From positions 1 through 42,984 of the IMG/VR virus record IMGVR_UViG_3300010938_000072: 42,984 bases of DNA, one strand, 5' to 3'. Origin of the DNA: a virus. Positions 1-42,820 of this stretch are shown here, piece by piece (position 1 is the stretch's first letter; every line of letters starts with the position of its first letter). A program made the position numbers and the translations under genes. The notes beneath the pieces were generated by a model. The model saw only the letters and a program-made list of their open reading frames with translations. It was not told where the DNA came from and made no database searches.

Positions 1-13
1 GGGGGGGGGGGGG
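1..13. other. Poly-G run at contig start
   Basis: The contig begins with 13 consecutive G residues and then changes abruptly to AT-rich sequence. A homopolymer at the very edge of an assembly is more likely a sequencing artefact than biology. It does mean that the true left end of the molecule is not established here. Confidence 0.6.
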
Positions 14-44
14 TGCTTTATAAAAAAAATATATATGTAAGTAT

Positions 45-78
45 GTCAGTATGTATGCAACCCAGTCAGTATGTATGC
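45..78. repeat. 14-bp direct repeat in the left leader
   Basis: GTCAGTATGTATGC occurs at 45-58 and exactly again at 65-78, a 20-bp period. It lies in the 154-bp leader before the first gene. The second copy also supplies one arm of the inverted repeat at 67-96. A pair of direct repeats with an overlapping palindrome upstream of an early operon suggests a protein-binding (operator-like) site. That role is inferred. Confidence 0.6.
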
Positions 79-96
79 TACTCCCAATACATACTG
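67..96. repeat. 10-bp inverted repeat in leader
   Basis: CAGTATGTAT (67-76) is the exact reverse complement of ATACATACTG (87-96), with a 10-nt spacer. No T-tract follows, so it is not a typical terminator. It may be an operator or an RNA hairpin at the start of the early transcript. Confidence 0.6.
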
Positions 97-117
97 AGCG
101 TACAGACGTGCCCAAGA

Positions 118-139
118 CAGTCTGTATATTTACAGACTG
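118..139. repeat. 9-bp hairpin just before the first gene
   Basis: CAGTCTGTA (118-126) pairs perfectly with TACAGACTG (131-139) around a 4-nt loop, ending 15 nt before the ATG at 155. The putative ribosome site (GAGGAAAG, about 139-146) directly follows the stem. If transcribed, the hairpin could affect initiation of the first gene. No U-tract follows. Confidence 0.6.
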
Positions 140-154
140 AGGAAAGCAATCACT

Positions 155-562
155 ATGGATAACAATAACAATAAGATGGACTGGCAACACCTGTTCGATA
201 ATGTAAAGGTTGAAGTTGTCACCCGAAGCGGACGACAACTAGACAGCCTGTCGGCTCGGAGCCTAGACAAGCTCCGAGACAAGAGCAAAGAAGCCGATGA
301 GTATTGGCTCAAGCACCAGAAGGTGCTTGAGCAAGAGCTAGCCCATGAGGGCTTCACCCCTTCGACAGGGATCGGTTACAAAAAGTACCATCCCCGAAAG
401 CGGGCAAGGGACATTAGCACTGTCCCCACCAAATCCCACAGCAAGGGATGGAATGTTGAAAGAGTCGCCGACAATCTCACGGTGTATCCTGACCAGAGAA
501 GGAATTGGGAATACATCAGTCGGGTGAACATCTACTTGCCCCCAATCGGGCAAGTAGAATAA
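155..562 (+). CDS. Hypothetical early protein (135 aa)
   Basis: This 135-residue, highly charged protein matches no family I recognise. The N-terminal half is Lys/Arg/Asp/Glu-rich and likely helical (residues about 25-65). A basic stretch HPRKRARD lies near residues 79-86. ATG at 155 follows GAGGAAAG at a good distance. It is the first gene of the left-end early block. The coding sequence carries perfect hairpins at 255-278, 307-332 and 531-558, the last ending at the stop codon. No signal peptide or membrane segment is visible. Confidence 0.7.
   Translation: MDNNNNKMDWQHLFDNVKVEVVTRSGRQLDSLSARSLDKLRDKSKEADEYWLKHQKVLEQELAHEGFTPSTGIGYKKYHPRKRARDISTVPTKSHSKGWNVERVADNLTVYPDQRRNWEYISRVNIYLPPIGQVE
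307..332. repeat. 11-bp perfect hairpin inside a gene
   Basis: GCTCAAGCACC (307-317) and GGTGCTTGAGC (322-332) are exact reverse complements around an AGAA loop, fully inside the 155-562 gene. It is one of a long series of intragenic hairpins in the left 5 kb. Confidence 0.85.
531..558. repeat. 11-bp perfect hairpin at gene end
   Basis: TCTACTTGCCC (531-541) pairs exactly with GGGCAAGTAGA (548-558) around a 6-nt loop. It lies immediately upstream of the TAA at 560-562. There is no T-tract, so a rho-independent terminator is unlikely. It could be a 3'-end stabiliser or a processing site. Confidence 0.85.
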
Positions 563-586
563 GCAAAGAGGAAAGGAAACAGAAAA

Positions 587-1009
587 ATGCAAAAAGCCGT
601 CTGGTTTAGTCGGCATCAGCCGACGCCACGCCAAATCGAGGATGCCGCCCGAATAGGGTACACCCTCGAAGTAACTCCCAAAGGCACTGCCCTTGGGACA
701 GTGGAAATGAAAGACAACAGCGATGTTAAGACTGTTGTCTTACATCTCTTATCGCATTGCGCCGACGTAGGTGCAATCGCCATATTCGGAGTGTTTCCTA
801 CCCCGATTCTAGGGCTGATAAACATGTCAGCCTATGATAGCTGGGTCAGGCAGGAAAACCTGCTAGTTGTCGGAAGCGAGGGAGATTTCCCTTGCTTCCA
901 GTCATGGAACGTAGCACGTTCCATCGAAGGTGGCAAACCCACCTTCGAGCACGCCCAATGGATTAACATTGGGCACCTGAATCGGTTGTCCTGCCGCTGG
1001 CTGAAGTAG
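587..1009 (+). CDS. Rossmann-like small protein, copy 1 of a duplicated pair
   Basis: This 140-aa protein is clearly paralogous to the product of 1775-2191; about half the residues match by eye, including WFSRHQP, GYTLEVTPKG, AIFGVF and SKPTF/GKPTF. The pattern is strand 1 (AVWFSRH, residues 4-10), then a PTPRQ turn and helix, then a second hydrophobic strand with AIFGVFPTPIL (65-75). This resembles small CARF-superfamily/Csx20-type proteins ([ST]RH or SH followed by TPEQ). The gene at 3249-3605 shows the same order. Function is unknown; a nucleotide-binding or ring-nuclease-like role is a hypothesis. AAGAGGAAAGGA before ATG 587 is the ribosome site. Confidence 0.75.
   Translation: MQKAVWFSRHQPTPRQIEDAARIGYTLEVTPKGTALGTVEMKDNSDVKTVVLHLLSHCADVGAIAIFGVFPTPILGLINMSAYDSWVRQENLLVVGSEGDFPCFQSWNVARSIEGGKPTFEHAQWINIGHLNRLSCRWLK
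904..974. repeat. Three back-to-back perfect hairpins
   Basis: Three perfect stems lie almost end to end inside one gene. They are 9 bp at 904-924 with a 3-nt loop, 10 bp at 924-948 with a 5-nt loop, and 8 bp at 953-974 with a 6-nt loop. Their arms are ordinary codons for a peptide stretch mostly shared with the paralogue at 1775-2191. The chance of this arrangement in random sequence is very small. Confidence 0.85.
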
Positions 1010-1023
1010 CCAGCCAGCAGTAA

Positions 1024-1047
1024 GAGTAGTAGTAGTAGTAGTAGGAG
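1024..1047. repeat. (AGT)n microsatellite after copy 1
   Basis: A run of AGT triplets follows the stop codon of the 587-1009 gene, in the 77-bp gap before the next gene. An equivalent run follows the paralogue at 2206-2230. Both runs are followed within a few tens of bases by TATGGACTGTA and then TAAACA. The whole gene-plus-tail cassette therefore appears duplicated. Confidence 0.8.
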
Positions 1048-1086
1048 TAGTTATGGACTGTAGTTAAACATGAGGAAGGAGAAAAT

Positions 1087-1782
1087 ATGGATAGCAGACT
1101 CCTAACAACCGGCTGGGGGGTTATAGTAAAGACCCCCACTTCAACGTGGTCGGGGCGTGGTAGCCACCCGACTGAACTTATTCCTGCCCGCAGGGGCGCT
1201 TGGCTTGTCCCCGCTGGGTGTACTGTCCGGTACACCTATGTAGGCAAGGGCTTCCGCCCTGCGTTCAACTCCTTTATTGTTCCCGAAGGGACATTCGTCA
1301 AGGTGTTCCTAAAAAGGGGCCGCACCGGAAGCGGCGACTTCCGGTATCGGTTAAGGCTGCAAATACCATCCGATGCCCCGGTACACCTACCGGGGCTAAG
1401 AAGCTCGGCGCACCCTTGCCCACGCCCAACAGGGATTGTCAAGGTGGCTGCTGCCACCAATGGGCCTGACTTCGTTGTCCTCCGGCAGTGTGCAGGGGGC
1501 CGCGAAATCCGGGGCGTCGCCACCCACCGAGGGAATGATGGCAACCTACGTGTCATTCCCGTCCTACCTCCACACGCAGGGGACAGCTTCATTGTAATCC
1601 CCGGTGACGTGGTGGAGCCAACAAGGGCCGCCAGCGAAGAGCTGGCTGCTGCGGCCCTAATGGTGGCAGACAATTACTACCTTAACCGCCTCGGCGACAA
1701 GGCAATCGCCGGGGTCAAGGCTTGGCTGGAAAGCCAAGCATCAGTGGGAGCCAACCATAAGAAAGGAGCCGTTAATGTTTAG
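1087..1782 (+). CDS. Hypothetical early protein (231 aa)
   Basis: A 231-aa protein with no family I recognise. It is rich in Gly, Val and Pro with short hydrophobic stretches, suggesting a compact beta-rich fold rather than a coiled coil. There is no signal peptide. The segment is GC-rich (62% in 1321-1380 by hand count). ATG 1087 follows GGAAGGAGAAAAT. It sits between the two copies of the duplicated Rossmann-like gene and overlaps the second by 8 bp, so it was probably enclosed by, or inserted between, the duplicates. Perfect hairpins lie at 1217-1236, 1324-1345, 1375-1396, 1531-1560, 1624-1658 and 1720-1739. Confidence 0.7.
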   Translation: MDSRLLTTGWGVIVKTPTSTWSGRGSHPTELIPARRGAWLVPAGCTVRYTYVGKGFRPAFNSFIVPEGTFVKVFLKRGRTGSGDFRYRLRLQIPSDAPVHLPGLRSSAHPCPRPTGIVKVAAATNGPDFVVLRQCAGGREIRGVATHRGNDGNLRVIPVLPPHAGDSFIVIPGDVVEPTRAASEELAAAALMVADNYYLNRLGDKAIAGVKAWLESQASVGANHKKGAVNV

Positions 1783-2191
1783 AGCAATATGGTTTTCCCG
1801 GCACCAACCAAGCCGGGAGCAGATAGAGGACGCGGACCGTTTGGGCTATACCCTTGAGGTAACTCCCAAGGGTATAGCTCTAGGGGCAATGGACTTGCAA
1901 AATGAGGGCGACGTGCAAACCGTTGTCTCTAAGCTATTGGCACACTGCACCGAAACTGGCACAGTTGCAATATTTGGGGTCTTTGCAGCCCCAATCCTAG
2001 CGCAAATCGCTAGGACAGGTTTGGACATTCTGCAACGTGGGTGCCTTGAGCCAGCTGGCGGCAAGGGTGACTACCCTTGCTTCGCTGCATGGAATATCAT
2101 GCGAAGTGTCGAAGGTAGCAAGCCCACCTTCGCGCACAAACAGTGGCTTTATATCGGCCACTTGAACCAGGACACCTGCCGTTGGTTGTAG
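1775..2191 (+). CDS. Rossmann-like small protein, copy 2 of a duplicated pair
   Basis: This 138-aa paralogue of the 587-1009 product shares WFSRHQP near the N-terminus, GYTLEVTPKG, VAIFGVF, YPCF/FPCF, KPTF and the C-terminal IGHLN..CRWL. The start at 1775 follows GAAAGGAG (1761-1768), and the gene overlaps the previous one by 8 bp. Cys, His and Trp in the C-terminal third are conserved between copies, which argues for function rather than decay. The role is unknown; see the finding on CARF-like proteins. The gene carries a 12-bp perfect hairpin at 1845-1878. Confidence 0.75.
   Translation: MFRAIWFSRHQPSREQIEDADRLGYTLEVTPKGIALGAMDLQNEGDVQTVVSKLLAHCTETGTVAIFGVFAAPILAQIARTGLDILQRGCLEPAGGKGDYPCFAAWNIMRSVEGSKPTFAHKQWLYIGHLNQDTCRWL
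1845..1878. repeat. 12-bp perfect hairpin inside a gene
   Basis: GCTATACCCTTG (1845-1856) is the exact reverse complement of CAAGGGTATAGC (1867-1878), with a 10-nt loop. The encoded peptide (GYTLEVTPKGIALG) is nearly identical in the paralogue at 587-1009, but the paralogue folds a different hairpin there. Confidence 0.85.
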
Positions 2192-2205
2192 TGAGCAACA
2201 AGGGC

Positions 2206-2230
2206 AGTAGTAGTAGTAGTAGTAGTAGTA
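2206..2230. repeat. (AGT)n microsatellite after copy 2
   Basis: About eight AGT triplets follow the stop codon of the 1775-2191 gene and mirror the run at 1024-1047. TATGGACTGTA follows at 2252-2262, as it does after the first run. The tract is intergenic and probably arose by slippage. It may act as a leader or spacer for the gene starting at 2300. Confidence 0.8.
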
Positions 2231-2299
2231 AGGTCCGAAGGGTTAACCCCCTGTATGGACTGTAAAACCGTGGCTAAACAACCAAACAAAGGAGCTAGG

Positions 2300-2791
2300 A
2301 TGGCAATCATCAATGCCATTACGGAATCTTTTCCCCTTGACGGGGAAAAGGTTCGGGTGAAAGGTCTGAGCTACTCCAGCATTGAGCTGGAGCAGCCAAC
2401 AACCTACAAGGGTTTGGAGCAATTGCTCCAAACCAATGAACAAGGCGTGGTGGAGGAGGCTTGGTCCTCCTTCGTCATCGCCGTTCAAAACTCTGGGCGA
2501 AATGCCCAGAAGGCGTTCATTCAGGCGGCCATTAGGGATGGTCGCCTTACAGTAGTTAACGGAGAAGTCGATGCTTCTCCCTTGGCCGATGAGGCCAAGA
2601 AAGCAGGCGATGAGGCCATGGCGGCCTACATTGCCGGTGAGCGGCGCCGTCGAGGAGCTGCAGCCTTTGGCCTTAAGGCTGCGAAGGCTAAGTTCTTTGA
2701 CCTGCCTGCTGAGAAGCAGGCGGAAGCCCTTGCTCTGTTGAAGGAGAAGGGCGACGAAGAGGCGTTCATCGCCTTCGTCAAAGCGGCCTAA
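2300..2791 (+). CDS. Hypothetical early protein (163 aa)
   Basis: I place the start at ATG 2300 because AAAGGAG (2288-2294) precedes it; an in-frame ATG at 2255 has no ribosome site. The 163-aa product is not recognised. Its C-terminal half is Ala/Lys/Glu-rich and helical (residues about 95-163), with repeated EA-rich helices and a basic RRRRG patch; the N-terminal half is mixed alpha/beta. Perfect hairpins lie at 2328-2350, 2374-2392, 2411-2434, 2492-2510, 2561-2580, 2581-2599, 2660-2682 and 2704-2721. The gene is part of the early block and is probably co-transcribed with 2853-3056. Confidence 0.7.
   Translation: MAIINAITESFPLDGEKVRVKGLSYSSIELEQPTTYKGLEQLLQTNEQGVVEEAWSSFVIAVQNSGRNAQKAFIQAAIRDGRLTVVNGEVDASPLADEAKKAGDEAMAAYIAGERRRRGAAAFGLKAAKAKFFDLPAEKQAEALALLKEKGDEEAFIAFVKAA
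2411..2434. repeat. 24-bp perfect palindrome inside a gene
   Basis: The 24 bases at 2411-2434 read identically on both strands (each arm GGTTTGGAGCAA). As RNA this gives a 10-bp stem with an AAUU loop. It is the longest uninterrupted palindrome I found in the left region. Dyad-binding proteins or RNA folding could use it; no regulator is identified. Confidence 0.85.
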
Positions 2792-2801
2792 CCTCCGCCA
2801 C

Positions 2802-2827
2802 GGGTCAAGGCAGAAATGCCTTGACCC
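2802..2827. repeat. Intergenic 11-bp hairpin with GAAA tetraloop
   Basis: GGGTCAAGGCA (2802-2812) pairs perfectly with TGCCTTGACCC (2817-2827) around a GAAA (GNRA) loop. A second outer stem, CTCCG (2793-2797) with CGGAG (2831-2835), extends it. It fills the 61-bp gap between two genes. There is no T-tract, so a stable RNA element or processing site is likelier than a terminator. Confidence 0.8.
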
Positions 2828-2852
2828 TCACGGAGTTTAGGAGGCTCCAAAA

Positions 2853-3056
2853 ATGAGTGTAAAGGCAGAGTTGTCGGTGCTCCTTAAGAAGGAGCAACCG
2901 CACAAAGGGCGAAAGCCCTCGAAGCAGTTCAACTTACAGGAGGCTTGCTTCTTCCTCGCGAAGAAGTATGCTATCCTTAATGGCGTCCCGCGGAAAGAGC
3001 GGGCACAATGGAAGGCTCTTTTTGTGAAGAGCCTTCTCAAGGAGCAAGGGCAATGA
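2853..3056 (+). CDS. Hypothetical small basic protein (67 aa)
   Basis: A 67-aa Lys-rich protein with no recognised family and no membrane segment. TTAGGAGG upstream gives a strong ribosome site for ATG 2853. The stop overlaps the ATG of the next gene (ATGA at 3053-3056), indicating translational coupling. Hairpins at 2878-2896 (8 bp) and 3011-3036 (10 bp) lie inside it. The predicted helix LQEACFFLAKKYAILNG (about residues 28-44) may be an interaction surface. Function is unknown. Confidence 0.65.
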   Translation: MSVKAELSVLLKKEQPHKGRKPSKQFNLQEACFFLAKKYAILNGVPRKERAQWKALFVKSLLKEQGQ

Positions 3057-3262
3057 ACTCGCTACCAGAGCTACTAACTCGGTTGGCTGGTGGTTATCCT
3101 CCACCAGACTTCCCCCGTGATTGGGAGGAATTTTGCAGTGCTGTCCGCAAAGGACAGCACCTCAAGTGGAACGGGATTGGCCAAAAAAGTGGCCACCTAC
3201 TGAAGTTAATCGTGCGGCGTATTGACGCCATGCGGAAGGAAAAAGAAAATGGGAATTCTTAA
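3053..3262 (+). CDS. Hypothetical small protein (69 aa)
   Basis: A 69-aa protein starting at ATG 3053, overlapping the previous stop as ATGA with AAGGAG upstream at 3040-3045. It overlaps the next gene's start at 3249. It contains an aromatic, Pro-rich N-terminus (GGYPPPDFPRDW) and a basic C-terminal helix ending in RKEKENGNS. No family is recognised. Its place directly before the Csx20-like gene suggests a shared operon. Perfect hairpins lie at about 3087-3107 and 3138-3160. Confidence 0.6.
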   Translation: MNSLPELLTRLAGGYPPPDFPRDWEEFCSAVRKGQHLKWNGIGQKSGHLLKLIVRRIDAMRKEKENGNS

Positions 3263-3605
3263 CTTGACAGGAGTCAAAGCCACCCCTGAGCAAATTGCTC
3301 AAGGGGTGGTTGACCCTCCCAAGATGGTGGGCTGCAAGGTGAAGGAGCTCCTCACCTTTAAAGACAAGCCTGACTGGCCCATGATGGAGAAACGGGCCAA
3401 AGGACTTGCGGAAATAGCTAAGCAACTTAGCTATTCCACAGTGATGATAGGGGGTGCGCCCTACTTTATGTCCTGCCTAGAAGAGCAACTGAAGCAGGCA
3501 GGACTTTGCTATTGCTACTCCTTTAAGAAACGCCTTCTTATAGAGAAGGCAGAAAATGGTGCCGTAAAGAGATACTACGAACTTAAACATATAGGATTTG
3601 TATGA
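3249..3605 (+). CDS. Csx20/CARF-like small protein (118 aa)
   Basis: I start this gene at ATG 3249 (GGAAGGAAAAAGA upstream) rather than the in-frame ATG at 3222. The 118-aa product shows strand 1 GILNLT, the ATPEQ turn (residues 11-15), VMIGGAPYFMSCLEEQLKQAG (65-85), then YSFKKR (90-95) and a C-terminal ELKHIGFV. This order resembles CRISPR-associated Csx20 and related small CARF-superfamily proteins as I remember them: SH-LTPEQ, a central GD-loop strand, YATTKR-like, and a terminal F-H-x-x-F. That superfamily senses or cleaves cyclic oligonucleotides. A counter-defence or signalling role is inference. It overlaps the next gene as ATGA. Confidence 0.6.
   Translation: MGILNLTGVKATPEQIAQGVVDPPKMVGCKVKELLTFKDKPDWPMMEKRAKGLAEIAKQLSYSTVMIGGAPYFMSCLEEQLKQAGLCYCYSFKKRLLIEKAENGAVKRYYELKHIGFV
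3280..3309. repeat. 30-nt near-perfect palindrome (14 bp paired)
   Basis: CCACCCC (3280-3286) pairs with GGGGTGG (3303-3309), and TGAGCAA (3287-3293) pairs with TTGCTCA (3295-3301). Only a central A and one bulged A (3302) are unpaired. It lies inside the Csx20-like gene. Another 11-bp stem with a single bulge follows at 3336-3358, and a 10-bp perfect stem at 3413-3435. Confidence 0.85.
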
Positions 3606-4267
3606 AAACAAAACTGCAAGCCGCCTTTATACTACACGGTAACAAGGTTCTTTGGTCACCCTACGTGGAGCACCACGAAGGCATAATCGAGCGGTACTGT
3701 TTAGATGAGGCACGTGTAGTCAAGGTGTATATGGCTCCTCCAGACGGGAAACCAAACGCACCACTTCATGAGTGGCAATATATAGAGCCTACAGTTGCTC
3801 CACCTTGGTATAACCCCACTAAGGCCAAGACCAAGGTCCGAAAAGCCTTGCGTGAATGGGCCGCTGAGAAGCTTATTAAGGGCGGTAAAAGAACCATTTA
3901 CGGGCCCCGCCAAGTTTATGTACTAGGTGGCGAGGTTATAGGATTTGATTCGGCAAAAATTTACCTTTTTAAGGGAAAGGCTTGGGGGTACGGACGCACG
4001 TCCATCGAAGCCTGTGGGGGTAAGGTTTTTGCCCATGGGAAAACAACAGTCTTTGCCCACGGGCGAGCAGAAGTTGAGGCGTATGAACTCGCCCGCACCG
4101 ATGTCTTTGACTCCTGCAAACTGGTTTGTGGAGACTTCACCTACAACAATATCAGAGGGAATGTAAAGGTGAAGGCAGAAGGGTATGCTTTTGTTCTTGC
4201 CCCACCGACAGCTAAGGTCGAGCTGTCGGGTCGAGCAACCTGCCGACTACTAACGGAGGACAAATGA
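3602..4267 (+). CDS. Beta-solenoid-like protein, copy 1
   Basis: A 221-aa protein paralogous to the next gene. Shared features are KVLWS near the N-terminus, MAPP, EW, PPW/PPKW, KALREWA/EALKEWA and a repetitive C-terminal part. Residues about 105-200 contain short strands with Gly turns (GYGRTSIEACGG, VFAHGKTTVFAHGRAEVEAY). This pattern fits a parallel beta-helix or solenoid, and similar short-repeat proteins occur in other phages. No enzyme motif is seen. The ATG overlaps the previous stop (ATGA), and the stop overlaps the next start. A 9-bp perfect hairpin lies at 4205-4229. Function is unknown. Confidence 0.7.
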   Translation: MKTKLQAAFILHGNKVLWSPYVEHHEGIIERYCLDEARVVKVYMAPPDGKPNAPLHEWQYIEPTVAPPWYNPTKAKTKVRKALREWAAEKLIKGGKRTIYGPRQVYVLGGEVIGFDSAKIYLFKGKAWGYGRTSIEACGGKVFAHGKTTVFAHGRAEVEAYELARTDVFDSCKLVCGDFTYNNIRGNVKVKAEGYAFVLAPPTAKVELSGRATCRLLTEDK

Positions 4268-4947
4268 AACTAATCAGAGCTTACTATTATAGTGGGTTAC
4301 CCGTATTAAAAGTTGGCCTGAAAAATCAAGCCAACTTCGTCGTGACCAAAGACAAGGTTCTTTGGTCATCATCCACAGAGGCCTTTTGGGAAATCCTTGC
4401 GGAGAAGGGCAAAAAGTACCTGCCAGAGGATGTTGTAAGGCTTTCGATGGCCCCCCCTCTAGGTGACATGACTCGAAACCTAGAAGAGTGGCAGCCCGTG
4501 CTCTTTCCAGGGCAAACCCCTCCCAAATGGTTTGACTCCACCTTACCCCGTGTCAAGGAGGCCCTCAAGGAATGGGCTAAAAGAAAGATAATTAAGAAGA
4601 AGCGGTGGTTAAAAGACCGCCAGCAAGCTTTCGTGGTAAGCGGCAACGTCTACGCGAGGGACTCAGTCCACCTGAAAGTCATCGATGGGATAGTAAGAAC
4701 CACAGGTCTGGCGACTGTCGAGGCTGAAGGTGGGGAAATCTTCGCCTATGGCCGAACTCTGGTCTTTGCCTATGGTCACGCCAGAGTAAGGGCATTTGAC
4801 TTTGCAAGGGTTTGGGCGTGGGGCCCGGTGGAGGTTGTCTGTAGTCAATACGCCTTTGCGGTTGTTAACGACGACACAAGGGCATGGGCCAAGGATGATG
4901 CTGTCATCCTTAAAAGGCAGACCATAAATGGGAAGGAGGATGAATGA
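4264..4947 (+). CDS. Beta-solenoid-like protein, copy 2
   Basis: A 227-aa tandem paralogue of the 3602-4267 product with the same layout: an N-terminal KVLWS domain, then MAPP, a KEWAKRKI helix, then repeated short strands (YARDSVHLKV, ATVEAEGGEIFAYG, LVFAYGHARVRAFD, ARVWAWGPVEV). The repeats imply a right-handed beta-helix. The gene is coupled by ATGA overlaps on both sides (4264-4267 and 4944-4947), so it is made together with the ligase. Hairpins lie at 4310-4337, 4343-4368 and 4891-4911. Retention of two divergent copies suggests they have distinct or hetero-oligomeric roles, which is inference. Confidence 0.7.
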   Translation: MKLIRAYYYSGLPVLKVGLKNQANFVVTKDKVLWSSSTEAFWEILAEKGKKYLPEDVVRLSMAPPLGDMTRNLEEWQPVLFPGQTPPKWFDSTLPRVKEALKEWAKRKIIKKKRWLKDRQQAFVVSGNVYARDSVHLKVIDGIVRTTGLATVEAEGGEIFAYGRTLVFAYGHARVRAFDFARVWAWGPVEVVCSQYAFAVVNDDTRAWAKDDAVILKRQTINGKEDE

Positions 4948-5834
4948 GGCCTATCCTAGCATTCAATCTTGAGGACTGGTCGAGCCCTATCAGGCTGCCA
5001 GTTCTAGCATCCCCTAAACTCGATGGGTTTAGGGTCCTAATAACGGGTCAAGGAGCGATGACTAGGTTCCTTAACCCACTGCCGAACCTCTTCGTTCGGC
5101 GACAGCTAGAGGGGTTGCCACCCGGACTAGATGGTGAGCTTATGGGCAGCGGCTCTTTTTATGAGGCCGCTTCGGCTTTCAAAAAGCTAAAGGGTGAACC
5201 AAGCTTCACCTTCTTCGTCTTTGATTATGTTAAAGGGTGGGAGGATTTACAAAAGCCTTACAGGCTCCGCCTGCAGGACTTGAATGAGTTAGAGCTACCT
5301 AGCTTTTGCAAAATCCTCCCACAAAGGTTCTGTCACACAATAAAAGACCTTCAAGAAGCAATGGAAACCTTTGTAGCTCAAGGACATGAGGGGGTCTGCT
5401 TCCGATTCGTGGACTCCCCTTACAAATTCGGTCGGAGCACCTTGAAGGAAGGATACCTTATCAAATATAAGCCTTTCGTAGAGGCAAAAGCAGAAGTCTT
5501 GGACGCATTCCCTTTGATGCATAACCTAAACCCGAAAGAGGTAAATGCTTTAGGACTGACTGAACGCTCTTCCAGTCGGTGTAACCTAGTGCAGGACGAA
5601 ACCCTCCTTGGTTCCCTCCTAGTCCGCACAGCTGGGTTCAGTCAGCCCTTCTTTATTGGTTCTGGATTCTCTATGTCCATGAGGGCTAGGTTGATGAAAG
5701 AACACAAGGCGGGACGGCTGATAGGTTCCACAGTCCCGTTCAAGTACATGGAGTACGGATGCAAAGATGCTCCTCGGCATCCAGTATTCCTAGAGCAAGA
5801 ATATGAGGAGCAAAAAGGAGAGCGCATACTATGA
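4944..5834 (+). CDS. ATP-dependent DNA ligase
   Basis: A 296-aa protein with the motifs of small phage ATP-dependent ligases. They are motif I SPKLDGFR with the adenylated Lys at residue 25, DGEL at 63-66, FDYV at 93-96, HEGVCFR at 148-154, and motif V LIKYKPF at 172-178. An OB-fold follows (about 205-270, GSLLVRTAGF...FFIGSGFS). It would seal nicks using ATP during replication or repair. Its length is typical of minimal viral ligases lacking an N-terminal DNA-binding domain. It is coupled to neighbours by ATGA at both ends. The coding sequence contains an unusually long imperfect stem at 5237-5322. Confidence 0.92.
   Translation: MRPILAFNLEDWSSPIRLPVLASPKLDGFRVLITGQGAMTRFLNPLPNLFVRRQLEGLPPGLDGELMGSGSFYEAASAFKKLKGEPSFTFFVFDYVKGWEDLQKPYRLRLQDLNELELPSFCKILPQRFCHTIKDLQEAMETFVAQGHEGVCFRFVDSPYKFGRSTLKEGYLIKYKPFVEAKAEVLDAFPLMHNLNPKEVNALGLTERSSSRCNLVQDETLLGSLLVRTAGFSQPFFIGSGFSMSMRARLMKEHKAGRLIGSTVPFKYMEYGCKDAPRHPVFLEQEYEEQKGERIL
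5237..5322. repeat. 19-bp interrupted stem in the ligase gene
   Basis: GTGGGAGGATTT (5237-5248) pairs exactly with AAATCCTCCCAC (5311-5322). Just inside, CAAAAGC (5250-5256) pairs with GCTTTTG (5302-5308). Only a small internal loop (A against CA) separates them. The enclosed 45 nt contains a further 5-bp hairpin. A 19-bp stem across coding sequence is unusual. Confidence 0.8.
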
Positions 5835-5998
5835 TAGTGGAGTTCGATGTGGATGTATTCTGCAGCTCATGTGGTGCTGAGCTGGTAGTGGCCTTCACCA
5901 AAGGTCGTCCATCTGCAATAGAGGTGGACATTTGTCCTAACTGTCTGAATGAAGCAAAAAAAGAGGCAAAGGAAGAAGCAAAGGAAGAAATCGAGTAG
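5831..5998 (+). CDS. Small zinc-ribbon-like protein (55 aa)
   Basis: A short gene that overlaps the ligase stop (ATGA, 5831-5834). The 55-aa product has two Cys pairs, CSSC at residues 11-14 and CPNC at 35-38, the spacing of a zinc ribbon. A Lys/Glu-rich helical tail (41-55) follows. Such small zinc proteins often bind nucleic acid or another protein. The gene is followed directly by the ribosome site of 6012-7055. The function is inferred from the Cys pattern only. Confidence 0.65.
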   Translation: MIVEFDVDVFCSSCGAELVVAFTKGRPSAIEVDICPNCLNEAKKEAKEEAKEEIE

Positions 5999-6011
5999 AA
6001 AGGAGCTAAAG

Positions 6012-7055
6012 ATGAACCTTACAATAGCTGCAAGGCAGTGGGCCACAAGGCCCGCAGATGAAAGGTTCTCTAACCTGTCTGGACTCAAGGCTGCGGTGGA
6101 GTTTAGGCGGTTAGGGTCCCAGTCGGTTAGTACTAGCCTACGCAAGGTTAGTGCCAGAGTCTATGAAGGGGGCATGCTTATAAATTCGGGGTTACCTGCT
6201 AGTTTCCCCTCAAACTGGGCCTTCGGCCAACTGTGTGCTCGGTTGGGGGTGCCTGCAGGCTACTTACGAACCCTTCCTACAGAGATGGTAGTAGACCTAC
6301 TTAACTATCACCTCAAGGAAAGTCAAGAGTCTGCTGCCTTTTTAGTCTATAAAGAGGCAGGCGTCAGCCAACTGCGAGCCGTGACGTCCACATCCTATGG
6401 AAGGATTTGGGACTCACAAGTTGTAGGTGCAGCAGAGAGGTTAGTTGACCTCTCAAATGGAAAGTTCCACAACCCTAAAGAGTGGAGTGGTCGTCCATCG
6501 GGGCTTTATGCTTCGGATAGGGATGTCTTTATCTTCCTTATTGATGGTGGCTCCATTGTGGATGGCGGCACCGACCGAGACCAGATGTATCGAGGAGTCA
6601 TTATGTGGAACTCAGAGGTAGGTTCAGCTACCTTTGGCCTCATGACCTTCCTGTTTCGCTGGGTGTGTGGAAATCATATAATCTGGGGGGCCTCAAATGT
6701 AAATAGCCTCCTGATTCGTCACACTGGAGGGGCACCTGAAAGATTCTCCTCTAATGTGTGGCCTACCCTCCAAAACTACCTTCAGCAAAGTACAAGCGAA
6801 GAAGAAAGCAAGATAAAGAAGCTCCAAAACCGTTTGCTCCCAATGAAGGAGAAATATATCATCGAGGCCTATCAGCCTCGTTTCACTAAGAGCGAGCTGG
6901 AGTCCGCTATTGGGTATGCTAAGAGGGAGGAAGGAGATTGCCGCACGGTTTGGCAGCTAATAAACGGCCTGACCGCAACAGCTAGGGACCTACCTTATAC
7001 TGACCAAAGGGTGAACCTTGAGCGTAGAGTAGGTCAGTTGATTGAGGTGTCCTAA
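6012..7055 (+). CDS. DUF932 family protein (347 aa)
   Basis: I use ATG 6012, which follows AAAGGAGCTAAAG; an in-frame ATG at 5949 would overlap the zinc-ribbon gene. The 347-aa protein has typical DUF932 signatures: YGRIWDSQVV (about 130-139), DVFIFLIDGG, RGVIMWNSEVGSATFGLMTF, VCGNHIIWGA and IRHTGGAPERF. DUF932 proteins are common in phages and plasmids near recombination and replication genes, but their biochemical activity is not established. Here it precedes the Sak4-like ATPase. Length is normal for the family. Confidence 0.85.
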   Translation: MNLTIAARQWATRPADERFSNLSGLKAAVEFRRLGSQSVSTSLRKVSARVYEGGMLINSGLPASFPSNWAFGQLCARLGVPAGYLRTLPTEMVVDLLNYHLKESQESAAFLVYKEAGVSQLRAVTSTSYGRIWDSQVVGAAERLVDLSNGKFHNPKEWSGRPSGLYASDRDVFIFLIDGGSIVDGGTDRDQMYRGVIMWNSEVGSATFGLMTFLFRWVCGNHIIWGASNVNSLLIRHTGGAPERFSSNVWPTLQNYLQQSTSEEESKIKKLQNRLLPMKEKYIIEAYQPRFTKSELESAIGYAKREEGDCRTVWQLINGLTATARDLPYTDQRVNLERRVGQLIEVS

Positions 7056-7073
7056 ATCTAAAGGAGACTCCCA

Positions 7074-7334
7074 ATGAACCCTGATATGGCCGATGGGTGC
7101 AAAGGCATCAAACAGTTGGAGCGGATATTAGCTCGCCCAACCGATTTATTGACCAATAATCTTCACGAGGCGTGGACGAACCTCGTCCGCGCCTACAACT
7201 GCGCAAAGAATAATCGCCAAACCGATATTGCTAACAAGATTGCCTATGCAATAGCCGATGCGTTGGTGTGTCTGGAGCATGCACGGGCGATGAGTTCGGT
7301 CAAAACGTATGGAGGCTCAGGTGAAAGCTCTTGA
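7074..7334 (+). CDS. Hypothetical helical protein (86 aa)
   Basis: An 86-aa protein with AAGGAGACTCCC upstream of ATG 7074. It appears all-helical (IKQLERILARP, HEAWTNLVRAYNCAK, IANKIAYAIADALVCLEHARAM) and might be a small helical-bundle or TPR-like protein. It has no recognised family. It overlaps the next gene by 26 bp. Confidence 0.6.
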   Translation: MNPDMADGCKGIKQLERILARPTDLLTNNLHEAWTNLVRAYNCAKNNRQTDIANKIAYAIADALVCLEHARAMSSVKTYGGSGESS

Positions 7335-7533
7335 ACGCCTCAGACTCCGCGACAACCTTGCCTGTATGCTCAAACCATACTTTCAAGATTTCTACCGTTC
7401 CAATGACTCCAAGTATATTTCCGAAGCGGCTGACGCCATAGTTAGGTGCTTCGAGAAAAGCTTGGTCTGTACACCAAAAACCAAAAGCAAAACAAAGGAG
7501 ACCTATGATACACAGAGTCCTACTAATGGGTGA
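7309..7533 (+). CDS. Hypothetical small protein (74 aa)
   Basis: A 74-aa protein overlapping the genes on both sides (26 bp and 29 bp). ATG 7309 lies inside the previous gene with only a weak ribosome site, so expression probably depends on coupling. The sequence is helical with a basic C-terminal tail (PKTKSKTKE). No family is recognised. Confidence 0.5.
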   Translation: MEAQVKALERLRLRDNLACMLKPYFQDFYRSNDSKYISEAADAIVRCFEKSLVCTPKTKSKTKETYDTQSPTNG

Positions 7534-8275
7534 ACCGGGGTCGGGGAAAACTACCTCGGTTGGCGAAACCTATCCTGAGCCAGTCCTCTTCCTCAATTTT
7601 GATAGAGGTGGCCTCGAAGCTATCACCAAGAGACAAGTAACTCATATCACCCCGTCCGAGCTGGTGGAAATTTGTGAAGGAAAAAGGGAAGCCAAGGGTG
7701 TTATGGTTAGAGACTACCTAACCTCACGTAACTCTGTTTCCCTCACCCTTTACCGCGAACCCGACGGGTCGGTGTGCTCGCAGTTTTTGGTGGACGTGAA
7801 CACCGTGCTGAAAAACAATCCATTCGCCACGATTTGTATAGATTCTTATACAAGGATGGATGAAGCAATAATGGACTTCGTGCTTTCCGCTCAAGGGAAA
7901 AAGTTCCCTGAAATCCAACATTACAAGTTCGAGCAGGACAAGAAGCACGAGCTCCTTACTACGTTGCTTGCCAATGTAGAGCGAATGAAGGGGTTGAAAG
8001 CCTTTGTCGTAATTGCTCACGTTGAAGCTACTAAGATAGAAGGTCTTGGTGAATTGCGCATTGTTCCCGCAGGGACAGGACGCGCTTACCAAGAGCATGT
8101 GGCGGGCTTGTTTAGCCATGTCCTTTATGCTACAACCGAACCCGGAGTAAATGGGCAGCGGTTTGTAGTGTGGACACAGCCACGCAACTACGTTAAAGGC
8201 CTAAAGATGAGAGGCTACAAAAAGCCTCCCGTTGTGGAGAATACCTACGAATCCATCTTTGGTGGAGCCTCCTAA
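7505..8275 (+). CDS. Sak4-like P-loop ATPase (recombination)
   Basis: A 256-aa P-loop protein. Walker A is GEPGSGKTT at residues 9-17, a Walker B-like strand is ATICIDS near 106, and FVVIAHVE follows at about 166-173. This matches phage Sak4/RAD51-core ATPases (AAA_24 type), which act as recombinases with an SSB partner in single-strand annealing or strand exchange. The SSB-like gene at 9972-10409 and the Cas4-like nuclease at 8999-9928 fit that pathway. AAAGGAG precedes ATG 7505. The stop overlaps the next ATG (TAATG). Confidence 0.82.
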   Translation: MIHRVLLMGEPGSGKTTSVGETYPEPVLFLNFDRGGLEAITKRQVTHITPSELVEICEGKREAKGVMVRDYLTSRNSVSLTLYREPDGSVCSQFLVDVNTVLKNNPFATICIDSYTRMDEAIMDFVLSAQGKKFPEIQHYKFEQDKKHELLTTLLANVERMKGLKAFVVIAHVEATKIEGLGELRIVPAGTGRAYQEHVAGLFSHVLYATTEPGVNGQRFVVWTQPRNYVKGLKMRGYKKPPVVENTYESIFGGAS

Positions 8276-10518: not shown

Positions 10519-10716
10519 ATGAAAGATTCCTACGAGAAACTTTTAGTTAAGCTTGACAGGGGCACAAGCGTTTCGCCTCTTATCTTGCGCCTTATAGAGG
10601 CAGCAGAACGAAAAGATGTAATTAGAGTTATCCAAGGCTGCACCAACATACAAGGCGAGCTTATCATGACCCTAACACTGGAGTTTTTCCATGAAGATAC
10701 CACTAAATCAAGTTAA
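10519..10716 (+). CDS. Hypothetical small protein (65 aa)
   Basis: ATG 10519 follows CGGAGGTTTG, a strong ribosome site placed after the inverted-repeat element at 10415-10497; an in-frame ATG at 10414 would run through that element. The 65-aa product contains helices LILRLIEAAERKDVIRVIQG and a C-terminal strand region. No family is recognised. It overlaps the next gene by 26 bp. Confidence 0.6.
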   Translation: MKDSYEKLLVKLDRGTSVSPLILRLIEAAERKDVIRVIQGCTNIQGELIMTLTLEFFHEDTTKSS

Positions 10717-12004
10717 AATTACCAATCGTTTTAGGAGAGATTTAGGCGAAATTCAAGAGTTAGCCCAAAGCTTGAAAAAGTACGGGCAGATTCAACCAAT
10801 TATCCTTGATTCAGACCAAAACTTAATTGCAGGAGAACGTCGCTTTCGTGCGGCTCAAATGTTAGGTTGGGAAGAAATCAGTTTCCAATACCGTGATGAC
10901 CTAGATGAACTTTCTAAGAGGGAGCTTGAACTAGAAGAAAATGTCTGCCGAAAAGACTTCACCGATAAAGAAAAAGTCGAAGCGGTCTTGGAAATTCATC
11001 GGCTTAAAACAAAGAAGTATGGTGAGTCTAGTACCTCTGGTGGTGGTTGGACATTAGCGGACACAGCTAAAAGCCTCAACATCAGTGCAGGATATGTAAG
11101 TCAAATCCTGACCGTAGCCGAAGGTTTAGAAAGACATCCTGGGCCTGTGAAAGAGGCACTTGAGAAGTCAGGTATTTATGCGGCCTATAAAGAAACGCGT
11201 AGGCAACAAATTGCATCCGTTGACTCTGTGTTGGTGAAGTTAAAGGAAACCAGGCCCACCTTAGATGAAGCTAAATTGGTGGAGTATGTTAACCAACATT
11301 TCTTGTTAGGGGATTGTTTGACCTTAATTAAATCCTTCCCCGAAGGAATGTTTCACTTCATCCACACTGACTCCCCTTACGGTATTGAATTGCGAAAGCA
11401 GAGGGATAATAAAGAGGCAGGTAACTTTGCGTCTGAAACTTATAAGGATGATGACCCTGAAGAGTTCCGTTCTATATGGACTGCGCTGGGTCCAGAATTG
11501 TATCGGGTGGCGACTAAAGACTCTTACGCCTTGCTTTGGTGTGCATATCCTATGATACAATTCCTAATTGACGTTATGTCCAAGGCAGGATGGAAATATA
11601 GGAATCCTCCCTTTACTTGGGTCAAAATAAATAGTCCTTGGTCTTGCATGCAACCCGGCAGACAGTTTGCTTCTGCAACTGATTGCGCCTTACTGTTTGC
11701 TAAAGGTGACCCTTACATGTTTAAGCAAGGACAGCCAAATTACTTCCTCCATCCCTCAATGAAAAGGGAGGAGGTTACTCACACCCTTGAACGCCCCAGA
11801 GCAATCTATGATTACCTTCACCCTATCTTCACTGTACCAGGGATGAACATCCTTGACCCGTTTGCCGGGTCGGCCTCCTGTCTCCGAGCTGCCTATAGGC
11901 AGGGACTGAACCCTTACGGCTTTGAAAAGGATGAAATATACTACAACCGAGCTAAACTGAAGTGGATTGAGGAGATGAAAAATGAACCGACTAGTACCAA
12001 ATAA
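10691..12004 (+). CDS. ParB-like/DNA methyltransferase fusion
   Basis: This 437-aa fusion has an N-terminal ParB/Srx nuclease-like domain (1-90: ELAQSLKKYGQIQPIILD, LIAGERRFRAAQMLGW). A helix-turn-helix follows (TLADTAKSLNISAGYVSQIL, about 120-139), then a methyltransferase. Motif IV is DSPYG at 227-231, where DPPY is usual, and motif I is DPFAGS at 389-394. The order catalytic motif then SAM motif is the beta class (N4-cytosine or N6-adenine). ParB-methyltransferase fusions occur in phages. It may mark phage DNA against restriction or in a sequence-guided way. It overlaps both neighbours by about 25 bp. Confidence 0.85.
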   Translation: MKIPLNQVKITNRFRRDLGEIQELAQSLKKYGQIQPIILDSDQNLIAGERRFRAAQMLGWEEISFQYRDDLDELSKRELELEENVCRKDFTDKEKVEAVLEIHRLKTKKYGESSTSGGGWTLADTAKSLNISAGYVSQILTVAEGLERHPGPVKEALEKSGIYAAYKETRRQQIASVDSVLVKLKETRPTLDEAKLVEYVNQHFLLGDCLTLIKSFPEGMFHFIHTDSPYGIELRKQRDNKEAGNFASETYKDDDPEEFRSIWTALGPELYRVATKDSYALLWCAYPMIQFLIDVMSKAGWKYRNPPFTWVKINSPWSCMQPGRQFASATDCALLFAKGDPYMFKQGQPNYFLHPSMKREEVTHTLERPRAIYDYLHPIFTVPGMNILDPFAGSASCLRAAYRQGLNPYGFEKDEIYYNRAKLKWIEEMKNEPTSTK

Positions 12005-26721: not shown

Positions 26722-27375
26722 TTAGTCAACATCAATTGGTGCATTGGACATCTTTAACTGGTTGTCGAGTTCTGTAAAGTTAAACAGGGCAATGTTGAAA
26801 GCTTCTTGGTTGAAGGGAATTCTCTCCTCTTCGAAGAGGTAGGTATTTGCGACCTTGATGGTCTCCCACAAGAGGAGGTCGTATCCTCGAAGAAGCAAGA
26901 AGTCCTCTTCGTCACCACTTGCGTAATCAGGGAGCCAGTGATAGTAGGTGATTTTTATCTCCTTTCCCAACTGTTCGGGATAGGTCCAGAAGGTGGGGGA
27001 GGAGGCTCCGGGTGTTATGTAGTATCGGGTTCGGCCAGCTTGGGTCGCCGGCTGATTGCTGGAGGTAGAGAACGTAGTGGCCATAAGCCGCCTACGTTCT
27101 CTACCCTCAGTTGTTGCCTCCAACGGAAGATTTATGCCGTTAACCACCACGAAGGCAGCATTATCTCCGTAGAAGGCTTTAAAGTCGGTAGGGAGAACAA
27201 AACCAACCCCACTTGTAGAGGGGTAGGTAAATGTCATCTCCTTCCGAGTAAAGGCGAAATCGTGCCCTCGCTGGAGGTTTATCCTTGCCAACTTGATAAA
27301 CCACGGAATTCGGTCTGTCAGGTTCTTTTTACCTACAAACTTATCCACCATTTCAACAAATTCGCCGTATTTCAT
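26722..27375 (-). CDS. Head-tail adaptor (P22 gp4/T7 gp11-like)
   Basis: A 217-aa protein with an N-terminal helix pair (VEMVDKFVGKKNLTDRIPWFIKLARINLQRG) and middle strands (FTYPSTSGVGFVLPTDFKAFY, YYITPGASSPTFWTYPEQL, IKITYYHWLPDY). A helical tail follows with ETIKVANTYLFEEERI. This arrangement is that of the tail tubular A/adaptor proteins that join the portal to the tail. It sits two genes after the capsid protein, the expected place. Its start ATG 27375 is preceded by GGAAGTAA. Confidence 0.7.
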   Translation of the reverse strand: MKYGEFVEMVDKFVGKKNLTDRIPWFIKLARINLQRGHDFAFTRKEMTFTYPSTSGVGFVLPTDFKAFYGDNAAFVVVNGINLPLEATTEGRERRRLMATTFSTSSNQPATQAGRTRYYITPGASSPTFWTYPEQLGKEIKITYYHWLPDYASGDEEDFLLLRGYDLLLWETIKVANTYLFEEERIPFNQEAFNIALFNFTELDNQLKMSNAPIDVD

Positions 27376-42047: not shown

Positions 42048-42080
42048 GCAAGCGAAAAGTGAGCGTGATTTTTCGCTTGC
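42048..42080. repeat. 11-bp inverted repeat in the control region
   Basis: GCAAGCGAAAA (42048-42058) is the exact reverse complement of TTTTCGCTTGC (42070-42080), with an 11-nt spacer. It lies upstream of the leftward terminase genes and is not followed by a T-tract in either direction. It could be an operator or a DNA cruciform near the start of the late unit. Confidence 0.7.
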
Positions 42081-42182
42081 GCTTGCTTTGAGTTGCTGCT
42101 AGTGTCTGAACGCAATGAACGATTGTACTGAAAAGGAAATAGCTTCTCCCCTTCCTCTTTATACTCTAAAATGCCTCAGGGT

Positions 42183-42305: not shown

Positions 42306-42488
42306 TACTGGAAGGGAGAGGGAGGAAGGGATTCCTTTGGCAATAGCCAGCGGCAAACTCGACGGTGCCCCCCTCGGCCACGCCGTGTCAAAACCGCGGA
42401 GCGTTGCGCCGCAACGACTTGAGTCGGTTGGCACACAACAAGCTCAAACAGCACGCGCCGCACAACAGCGGCAGAAAGGAAAGCACAA

Positions 42489-42779
42489 ATGGAAGTGAAA
42501 GGAGTAAAAGTCGAGGCCGGCAAGGTAGTCATCACCCTTGCCGCCGATTGGTCGCCCCGGCTGATGCCGGGTGGTGTTAGCAAGGATGGGAAGCCGTACC
42601 CCATCAAACTCAAATGCTTGGAAGGGTTCTACGGGGCTACGTGCCCCGTAGCAAAAGTCACGGCTGACGGCGAACAGTTCCAGCTGTTTGCCTCACTTGA
42701 TATCTTCGGGCTTCGGCCCGAAGACGTCAAGCAGAAGGGAACCGCCAATAAGGCGGTCCCGGTGCAGTTCAAACTCTAG
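42489..42779 (+). CDS. Hypothetical protein, first gene of the rightward unit (96 aa)
   Basis: A 96-aa protein with AGAAAGGAAAG before ATG 42489. Short strands (VKGVKVEAGKVVITLAADW, VAKVTADGEQFQLFASLDIFG) suggest a small beta-barrel. No family is recognised. It is followed by a strong terminator at 42786-42820, so it can be expressed as its own unit. Like the left-end genes, its coding sequence is full of hairpins (42629-42651 and 42696-42731). Confidence 0.65.
   Translation: MEVKGVKVEAGKVVITLAADWSPRLMPGGVSKDGKPYPIKLKCLEGFYGATCPVAKVTADGEQFQLFASLDIFGLRPEDVKQKGTANKAVPVQFKL
42696..42731. repeat. Intragenic hairpin with UUCG tetraloop
   Basis: TCTTCGGGC (42703-42711) pairs exactly with GCCCGAAGA (42716-42724) around TTCG. 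CTTGA (42696-42700) with TCAAG (42727-42731) extends the stem after a 2-by-2 internal loop. It lies inside the 42489-42779 gene. Confidence 0.8.
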
Positions 42780-42785
42780 CGGGTC

Positions 42786-42820
42786 AGAGCCGAGCACGTT
42801 CGCGTGCTCGGCTCTTTTCT
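42786..42820 (+). terminator. Rho-independent terminator
   Basis: A perfect 13-bp stem, AGAGCCGAGCACG (42786-42798) with CGTGCTCGGCTCT (42803-42815), closes a UUCG tetraloop and is followed by TTTTCT. It lies 7 bp after the stop of the 42489-42779 gene. It is a textbook intrinsic terminator and the only one I can support in the window. Confidence 0.92.

What the first reader, a model, noticed from the sequence alone, without database searches (positions are those of the whole stretch)
250..5000. Early coding sequence is saturated with perfect hairpins
Seen directly: between 250 and 5000 I find about 27 stems of 8 bp or more with short loops, nearly all inside genes. Positions: 255-278, 307-332, 531-558, 711-741, 904-924, 924-948, 953-974, 1324-1345, 1375-1396, 1531-1560, 1720-1739, 1845-1878, 1995-2015, 2328-2350, 2411-2434, 2660-2682, 2802-2827, 2878-2896, 3011-3036, 3138-3160, 3280-3309, 3336-3358, 3413-3435, 4205-4229, 4310-4337, 4343-4368 and 4891-4911. 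Many 7-bp stems lie between them. A simple estimate (4750 positions, 12 loop sizes, 4 to the power -8) expects about one. I do not see comparable density from about 7 kb onward. The early mRNA would be a chain of hairpins. This could protect against RNases or RNA-targeting defence, pace translation, or work as folded single-stranded DNA on entry. A template-switching mutational process is the neutral alternative.
Basis: partly seen in the sequence, partly recalled or inferred. Interest (0 to 1): 0.88.

Follow-up and report, generated by a model that had tools for sequence, protein, structure and literature searches.

The report
Hairpin-packed early genes of a phage
The first five kilobases of this uncultured phage carry about fifteen times more perfect DNA hairpins inside genes than chance allows; the pattern looks like a DNA-copying process that turns neighbouring stretches into mirror partners, rather than folding of the messenger RNA, and a weaker version sits at the same place in one distant relative.

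Summary
26 of the 27 listed stems are exact at 8 bp or more; the other has 7 bp. In 155-4947 there are 28 perfect stems of at least 8 bp, against 1.8 in shuffles keeping each protein and its codons (max 7 of 100) and 0.75 in a second-order Markov null. Direct and mirror repeats show little or no such excess, and it vanishes beyond about 30-base spacers. From 7 kb to 41.9 kb counts are near expectation. The dense domain includes the right end (42.5-43 kb) and fades after 3.6-5 kb.
The phage is a distant relative of 43-45 kb podoviruses (Kuura, Mel-JY34, PaP2, LS06). Most relatives, T7 and N4 have none; Desulfofustis phage LS06 has a weaker cluster in its own first early genes (11 versus about 1).
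RNA-structure selection is not supported: G-T and A-C mismatches are equal, and sense and antisense strands fold equally well. Arms share no motif. Hairpins turn over between paralogues, often with one arm changed. My best reading is coding palindromes made and kept perfect by short-range template switching, filtered by protein and translation constraints. Why only the early region is unexplained. The closest precedent is nematomorph mitochondrial coding palindromes.

The parts
66..97 (.). perfect inverted repeat, 11 bp arms, loop 10 (upstream of first early gene)
118..139 (.). perfect inverted repeat, 9 bp, loop 4 (upstream of first early gene)
155..562 (+). early gene 1 (135 aa, no PHROG family; only a sub-threshold DUF6074 match); 3 stems of at least 8 bp vs 0.12 expected
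255..278 (.). coding hairpin 8 bp, loop 8
307..332 (.). coding hairpin 11 bp, loop 4
531..558 (.). coding hairpin 11 bp, loop 6
587..1009 (+). early gene 2 (140 aa), paralogue of gene 4; 4 stems of at least 8 bp vs 0.10
711..741 (.). coding hairpin 10 bp, loop 11; absent from paralogue
872..899 (.). coding hairpin 11 bp with one G-T, loop 4; counterpart of 2061-2080 in the paralogue
904..924 (.). coding hairpin 9 bp, loop 3; right arm changed relative to paralogue (6/9 vs 2/9)
924..948 (.). coding hairpin 10 bp, loop 5; partly conserved in paralogue (2110-2132)
953..974 (.). coding hairpin 8 bp, loop 6
996..1018 (.). hairpin 8 bp, loop 7, across the stop of gene 2
1087..1782 (+). early gene 3 (231 aa); 4 stems of at least 8 bp vs 0.30
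1324..1345 (.). coding hairpin 8 bp, loop 6
1375..1396 (.). coding hairpin 9 bp, loop 4
1531..1560 (.). coding hairpin 8 bp, loop 14
1720..1739 (.). coding hairpin 8 bp, loop 4
1775..2191 (+). early gene 4 (138 aa), paralogue of gene 2 (57% aa identity); 3 stems of at least 8 bp vs 0.12
1845..1878 (.). coding hairpin 12 bp, loop 10; 5 of 12 pairs kept in paralogue, protein nearly unchanged
1995..2015 (.). coding hairpin 8 bp, loop 5; right arm changed relative to paralogue (6/8 vs 2/8)
2061..2080 (.). coding hairpin 8 bp, loop 4; counterpart of 872-899 with one A-T to T-A pair change
2255..2791 (+). early gene 5 (178 aa; start may be 2300); 3 stems of at least 8 bp vs 0.30, 9 of at least 7 bp vs 1.0
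2328..2350 (.). coding hairpin 9 bp, loop 5
2411..2434 (.). coding hairpin 10 bp, loop 4
2660..2682 (.). coding hairpin 8 bp, loop 7
2802..2827 (.). intergenic hairpin 11 bp, loop 4
2853..3056 (+). early gene 6 (67 aa)
2878..2896 (.). coding hairpin 8 bp, loop 3
3008..3262 (+). early gene 7 (84 aa)
3011..3036 (.). coding hairpin 10 bp, loop 6
3138..3160 (.). coding hairpin 9 bp, loop 5
3222..3605 (+). early gene 8 (listed start TTG 3222; ATG at 3249 more likely from its ribosome-binding site)
3280..3309 (.). coding hairpin 8 bp, loop 14 (inner 6 bp stem past one A-C mismatch)
3336..3358 (.). coding hairpin 7 bp, loop 9 (reader counted 8)
3413..3435 (.). coding hairpin 10 bp, loop 3
3602..4267 (+). 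early gene 9 (221 aa), paralogue of gene 10
4205..4229 (.). coding hairpin 9 bp, loop 7
4264..4947 (+). early gene 10 (227 aa); 3 stems of at least 8 bp vs 0.37
4310..4337 (.). coding hairpin 8 bp, loop 12 (left arm in a stretch the paralogue lacks)
4343..4368 (.). coding hairpin 10 bp, loop 6; left arm 7/10 changed, right arm 0/10 changed relative to paralogue
4891..4911 (.). coding hairpin 8 bp, loop 5
5012..5034 (.). hairpin 8 bp, loop 7, start of the DNA ligase gene; far edge of the dense domain
42048..42080 (.). inverted repeat 11 bp, loop 11, at the right-hand edge of the domain
42489..42779 (+). small gene (96 aa) with 3 stems of at least 8 bp (42518-42543, 42629-42651, 42703-42724) vs 0.69 expected
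42786..42815 (+). 13 bp hairpin followed by TTTT: an ordinary intrinsic terminator, not counted as part of the anomaly

Best explanation
The first-early region is a domain of 'coding palindromes': short perfect inverted repeats (6-12 bp arms, mostly 3-20 base loops) that arise and are kept perfect at the DNA level. A DNA polymerase switches briefly to the nearby complementary or nascent strand at an imperfect hairpin and copies one arm onto the other (quasipalindrome correction). The products survive where the encoded protein and the ribosome-binding sites tolerate them, and they erode by point mutation. Shown here: the excess, its inverted-repeat specificity, its locality, the lack of strand or wobble bias, turnover between paralogues, avoidance of start codons, and a weaker counterpart in one distant relative. 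Inferred: the template-switch mechanism, and that something about replication, transcription or single-stranded DNA exposure of this region (or relaxed constraint on its accessory genes) concentrates the process there.
For: Inverted repeats alone are strongly in excess. Interrupted stems hold G-T and A-C equally (4 and 5 at 8 or more pairs, each about 0.95 expected), and the bases just inside and outside the stems are transition-type mismatches of both kinds (63/136, null about 31%): erosion without RNA wobble tolerance. Sense and antisense folding are equally improved. Hairpins present in only one of two paralogues show unequal divergence of the arms (sum of differences 26 vs 16, P = 0.02); the clearest is 4343-4368 with the left arm 7/10 changed and the right arm 0/10. 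No motif is shared by arms. For arms of 9 bp or more, the register pairing third with third codon positions is absent (0/14; null about 30%), and residues in arms are at least as conserved as others (38/62 vs 40/76): the same signs of protein-level filtering as in nematomorph palindromes (PMC6649704). Template switching creating and repairing perfect stems is documented (PMC8794818, PMC8604942).
Against: It does not explain why the process would be confined to about 6 kb of a 43 kb genome, or why most relatives lack it. No stem in the domain is longer than 12 bp (apart from the terminator), whereas template switching can make far longer ones. The arm-asymmetry test rests on nine hairpins and was weak with shared hairpins included (27 vs 21). 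The register and erosion signs did not recur in LS06. Spacing of hairpins is slightly more even than random in 60-3650 (P 0.01 to 0.2), which a purely mutational process would not predict.
Confidence: 0.5

Rival explanations
1. Selection for structured early mRNA: hairpins shield the first transcripts from host RNases or RNA-targeting defence, or pace translation.
For: The domain coincides with the genes presumably transcribed first. Predicted RNA hairpins are stable (median -12.9 kcal/mol). Arms avoid translation starts (8 arm bases vs 43 expected, P = 0.014). Loops beginning G and ending A outnumber the reverse complement 12 to 2, though not clearly above the null.
Against: G-U is not preferred over A-C in the early region; antisense folding is improved as much as sense (mean z -4.86 vs -4.88). 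Selected RNA stems normally hold many G-U pairs. Most hairpins are not at the same place in the paralogues.
Confidence: 0.2
2. Selection for structure in DNA itself: both strands of the early region need to fold when single-stranded (entry, replication start, recombination at an end), for example to resist nucleases or to seed priming.
For: Strand symmetry and lack of wobble bias. Location next to the probable genome end or early/late divergence in both this phage and LS06. Predicted DNA hairpins are stable (median -8.2 kcal/mol). Slightly even spacing.
Against: No single-stranded stage of this kind is known to me for such phages. Arms share no sequence or fixed geometry. Relatives with the same gene plan do without it.
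Confidence: 0.18
3. The early genes were acquired from, or evolve under the mutational habits of, a host whose coding sequences are themselves rich in close inverted repeats.
For: Some bacterial genera have extremely over-represented palindromes in coding regions (PMC4060949). The dense genes have no relatives in the collections searched and a somewhat higher GC content than most later genes.
Against: The host is unknown; reported bacterial excesses are genome-wide statistics, and I know of none at one stem of at least 8 bp every 170 bases. Not tested.
Confidence: 0.07
4. Artefact of assembly or amplification, or a chance effect of amino-acid and codon composition.
For: The contig begins with 13 G and ends inside a 20 bp tandem repeat, so its ends are imperfect.
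Against: Reading frames are intact across the stems; codon shuffles do not reproduce the excess; a complete GenBank record of another phage has a similar cluster.
Confidence: 0.02

Closest known systems
Coding palindromes of nematomorph mitochondrial genes (Mikhailov et al. 2019, PMC6649704)
   Same: Many perfect inverted repeats inside functional genes, close arms, both arms coding for conserved residues, few imperfect forms, turnover between homologues, avoidance of the register pairing third with third codon positions at longer arms.
   Different: Phage, not mitochondrion. Arms 6-12 bp, not 15-142 bp; confined to one end of the genome; imperfect forms with single transition mismatches exist here in modest excess.
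Quasipalindrome-associated template-switch mutation in bacteria, yeast and rRNA genes (PMC8794818, PMC8604942, PMC7202029)
   Same: Predicts perfect stems, unequal change of the two arms, multi-base changes within codons, no RNA-strand bias.
   Different: Known as sporadic events; a domain with about one stem of at least 6 bp every 65 bases was not found described.
Small inverted-repeat excess and mRNA structure in bacterial coding regions (Ladoukakis and Eyre-Walker 2008; Katz and Burge 2003, as cited in PMC4060949)
   Same: Excess of 6-9 bp inverted repeats in coding sequence relative to nulls.
   Different: There the excess is described as small but significant and genome-wide; here it is about fifteen-fold and regional.
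Phage N4 hairpin promoters and virion RNA polymerase
   Same: Short DNA hairpins in an early region of a podovirus.
   Different: From general knowledge, N4 has three conserved hairpin promoters between genes. Here dozens with no shared sequence lie inside genes. The 2087 aa protein has no polymerase family match in PHROGs or Pfam; the single-subunit RNA polymerase search of the genome was uninformative because its controls also gave nothing.

Membership tests
Coding palindromes (nematomorph type) | numerous perfect inverted repeats inside protein-coding genes, beyond codon-preserving expectation | tested here: met
   28 vs 1.8; per gene
Coding palindromes (nematomorph type) | both arms encode conserved residues; protein kept | tested here: met
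   arm columns 38/62 identical vs 40/76 elsewhere in the gene 2/4 pair; intact frames. Only one paralogue pair
Coding palindromes (nematomorph type) | no excess of imperfect repeats | tested here: inconclusive
   15 one-mismatch stems with at least 8 pairs vs 4.6 expected, less than the perfect excess
Coding palindromes (nematomorph type) | bias against the third-third codon register at longer arms | tested here: met
   0/14 at 9 bp or more, null 30%; not seen in LS06
Coding palindromes (nematomorph type) | arms long (15-142 bp) | tested here: not met
   maximum 12 bp in the early domain
Template-switch (quasipalindrome) products | one arm copied from the other: unequal arm divergence from a homologue without the hairpin | tested here: inconclusive
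   P = 0.02 on nine hairpins unique to one paralogue; 27 vs 21 when shared ones are included
Selected RNA structure | G-U tolerated as a pair, sense-strand specificity | tested here: not met
Selected RNA structure | covariation in homologous stems | tested here: inconclusive
   one double change (A-T to T-A) in the single hairpin pair 872-899 / 2061-2080; no closer relatives
N4-type hairpin promoters | conserved stem-loop consensus | tested here: not met
   no k-mer shared among arms beyond chance
Mobile palindromic elements (Rickettsia type) | copies related in sequence | tested here: not met
   hairpins share only five isolated 8-mers between pairs, no family

The most novel reading that the evidence does not exclude
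Some podoviruses of this group keep the first-entering or first-expressed stretch of their genome hairpin-saturated by selection, at the DNA level, through synonymous choice in accessory early genes: a structural feature of the genome end (for replication start, protection, or templated diversification of anti-host genes) not described in phages.
Probability: 0.22. Interest if true: 0.85.

Novelty: new variant of a known kind. Interest (0 to 1): 0.62.

Why it matters
If the process is template switching, this phage has a regional hotspot strong enough to write itself over several genes, which would make a largely hidden mutation type measurable in the laboratory and offers a source of rapid, templated change in accessory early genes. 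If it is selected, it would be a DNA-structure function at a phage genome end that I do not find described. Either way the same sequence tests (wobble symmetry, codon register, arm asymmetry in homologues) can be applied to other genomes.

Tried and rejected
Close relatives: none at DNA level in the phage collection (bases 1-24000); protein searches gave only distant kin, about 30-37% identity, and none for the early genes, so orthologue covariation could not be tested. Relatives of the LS06 cluster: none. Rfam: no match; tRNAs: none. Single-subunit RNA polymerase: no match, but the control also gave none, so uninformative. Shared arm motif: none. Terminators: 14 terminator-like sites in 1-8000 vs 9.8 expected, not the explanation. 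L042 'cluster' is one AT dinucleotide repeat; L039 cluster lies mostly in poorly coding DNA. Stem length does not trade off with GC or loop size. Literature searches found no phage case.
Full report
What was claimed and what is there. A mechanical scan for perfect Watson-Crick arms with loops of 3-14 bases finds 26 of them exactly as given; 3336-3358 has 7 pairs, not 8. Five more of at least 8 pairs were not listed. In 155-4947 there are 28 stems of at least 8 bp. Shuffling synonymous codons within each gene, which keeps every protein and its codon use, gives 1.8 on average and at most 7 in 100 trials; second-order Markov sequences give 0.75. Gene by gene, nine of the ten early genes have two to four such stems and the tenth has one, where 0.04 to 0.4 are expected; the other genes are near expectation, except the small gene 42489-42779 (3 vs 0.69) and a few middle and late genes with one or two stems.

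Anatomy. The excess grows with arm length (6 bp: 21 vs 11; 7: 17 vs 3.3; 8: 13 vs 1.4; 9: 5 vs 0.28; 10: 6 vs 0.12; 11: 3 vs 0.01; 12: 1 vs 0) and is strong at loops of 3-20 bases; it fades at 21-30 and is gone from 31. Mirror repeats show none and direct repeats only a slight excess (4 vs 1.0 at 8 or more). Counting non-overlapping stems of at least 6 bp, 60-3650 holds 54 hairpins that span 34% of the sequence, with no gap above 137 bases. Density then drops, with scattered stems in 4.2-5.0 kb, and by 7 kb counts are ordinary; 42.5-43 kb is dense as well. If the two contig ends are neighbours in the genome, as in circular records of relatives, this is one domain that straddles the divergence between the leftward late genes and the rightward early genes. 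The window starts with 13 G and ends in a 20-bp tandem repeat, so what lies between is unknown.

What genome this is. The window is a virus record of 42,984 bases. It encodes an ATP-dependent ligase, a Sak4-like protein, a PD-(D/E)XK nuclease, a ParB-methyltransferase protein, a family A DNA polymerase fused to a uracil-DNA glycosylase domain, a primase, and portal, capsid and terminase proteins. Its nearest kin by polymerase and capsid are 43-45 kb podoviruses such as Caulobacter phage Kuura, Microcystis phage Mel-JY34, Desulfofustis phage LS06-2018-MD01 and Pseudomonas phage PaP2 (Fredfastierviridae), at roughly 27-30% identity, and IMG/VR contigs at 29-37%. The hairpin-dense genes have essentially no family or database match.

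Is it shared? In per-gene codon-shuffle tests most relatives, T7 and the first 30 kb of N4 show observed/expected ratios from 0 to 1.8 with no outlying gene; one IMG/VR contig reaches 2.6 without an outlying gene, another (G010) 3.5, and the window 5.3. Two records have local clusters. In LS06 the five early genes between its terminase operon and the rest of the early operon hold 11 stems of at least 8 bp against about 1.0 expected, while its ligase, polymerase, primase and structural genes are at expectation. In IMG/VR contig G010 a cluster lies at the corresponding place but mostly in doubtful coding sequence. So the pattern is rare, recurs at least once in a different sequence context, and then at the same place in the gene plan. 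I chose LS06 for the detailed test because its raw counts stood out; this is a post hoc replicate.

DNA or RNA? If stems were kept because the mRNA folds, G-U pairs should be tolerated and A-C should not. In one-mismatch stems with at least 8 pairs there are 4 G-T and 5 A-C, each expected about 0.95 by chance. The first mismatch inside and outside the stems is G-T or A-C in 63 of 136 cases against about 31% in shuffled sequence, with A-C as frequent as G-T (34 and 29). The integrated version agrees: over ten genes the folding energy of 90-base windows is better than codon shuffles by a mean z of -4.88 on the sense and -4.86 on the antisense strand. Two weak hints point the other way: loops that begin with G and end with A outnumber the reverse complement 12 to 2 (not clearly above the null), and arms avoid the -20 to +5 zones of start codons (8 bases vs 43, P = 0.014). 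The second is also expected if hairpins arise for other reasons and harm translation initiation.

History from paralogues. Genes 2 and 4 (57% amino-acid identity) and genes 9 and 10 (37%) are duplicate pairs. Only two hairpin positions are shared between genes 2 and 4; the others are present in one copy alone. For nine hairpins found in one paralogue only, the arms differ unequally from the homologue (sum 26 vs 16, P = 0.02); including shared hairpins the signal is weak (27 vs 21). The clearest case is 4343-4368: right arm identical in the paralogue, left arm different at 7 of 10 positions and equal to the reverse complement of the right. In the shared hairpin 872-899/2061-2080 one pair changed from A-T to T-A. 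Residues under arms are conserved as well as others, and arms of at least 9 bp never use the register that pairs third with third codon positions, which nematomorph palindromes also avoid at length because it constrains the proteins most (PMC6649704).

Best reading. These facts are what one expects of perfect inverted repeats generated and repaired at the DNA level by short-range template switching, filtered by protein function and translation starts, and eroding by transitions. Published work shows that template switching makes perfect stems and multi-base changes in one step (PMC8794818, PMC8604942). I give this 0.5. What it does not explain is location. Candidate reasons, all inferred, are single-stranded DNA near a genome end or origin, heavy early transcription (RNA-DNA hybrids start such mutations in yeast, PMC3820800, abstract only), and relaxed constraint on accessory genes; the last alone fails because most relatives have accessory early genes without hairpins. 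Selection for DNA structure (0.18) and for RNA structure (0.2) remain open.

Novelty. The kind of thing (coding palindromes; template-switch stems) is known from hairworm mitochondria and as a weak genome-wide excess in bacteria (PMC6649704, PMC4060949). I found no description in a phage, nor of a regional domain of this density (the library is partial).

Noticed in passing
window 1-13 and 42930-42984: Contig begins with 13 G and ends in 2.8 copies of a 20 bp tandem repeat CACCAGGGAGCACACCTACT; the true genome end or join is missing.
   Followed up: partly
window 11982-14348: DNA polymerase A with 3'-5' exonuclease carries an N-terminal uracil-DNA glycosylase domain.
   Followed up: no
window 10691-12004: ParB N-terminal domain fused to an N6/N4 DNA methyltransferase.
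   Followed up: no
window 1025-1051 and 2206-2230: AGT triplet runs directly after paralogous genes 2 and 4, so the duplicated unit (about 1185 bases apart) includes gene plus triplet repeat.
   Followed up: partly
window 3602-4947: Second tandem duplicate pair (genes 9 and 10, 37% aa identity) sharing an exact 17-mer ACAAGGTTCTTTGGTCA.
   Followed up: partly
window 15532-21795 (-): 2087 aa protein at the end of the late operon with no significant Pfam or PHROG match; contains an HEVVH motif that may mark a metallopeptidase within an ejected virion protein. Relatives have 1350-1900 aa proteins at the same place.
   Followed up: partly
window 42190-42269: Degenerate 15 bp repeats (GGTAAATCATCTTTC-like) within the small ORF 42115-42498.
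   Followed up: no
window 27064-27105: Isolated 14 bp perfect hairpin (loop 14) inside a late gene (26722-27375, minus strand).
   Followed up: no
L049 (T7) and L009 (Tiera): Fewer coding hairpins than codon shuffles predict (0 vs 4.7 and 1 vs 6.8): some phages seem to avoid them.
   Followed up: no
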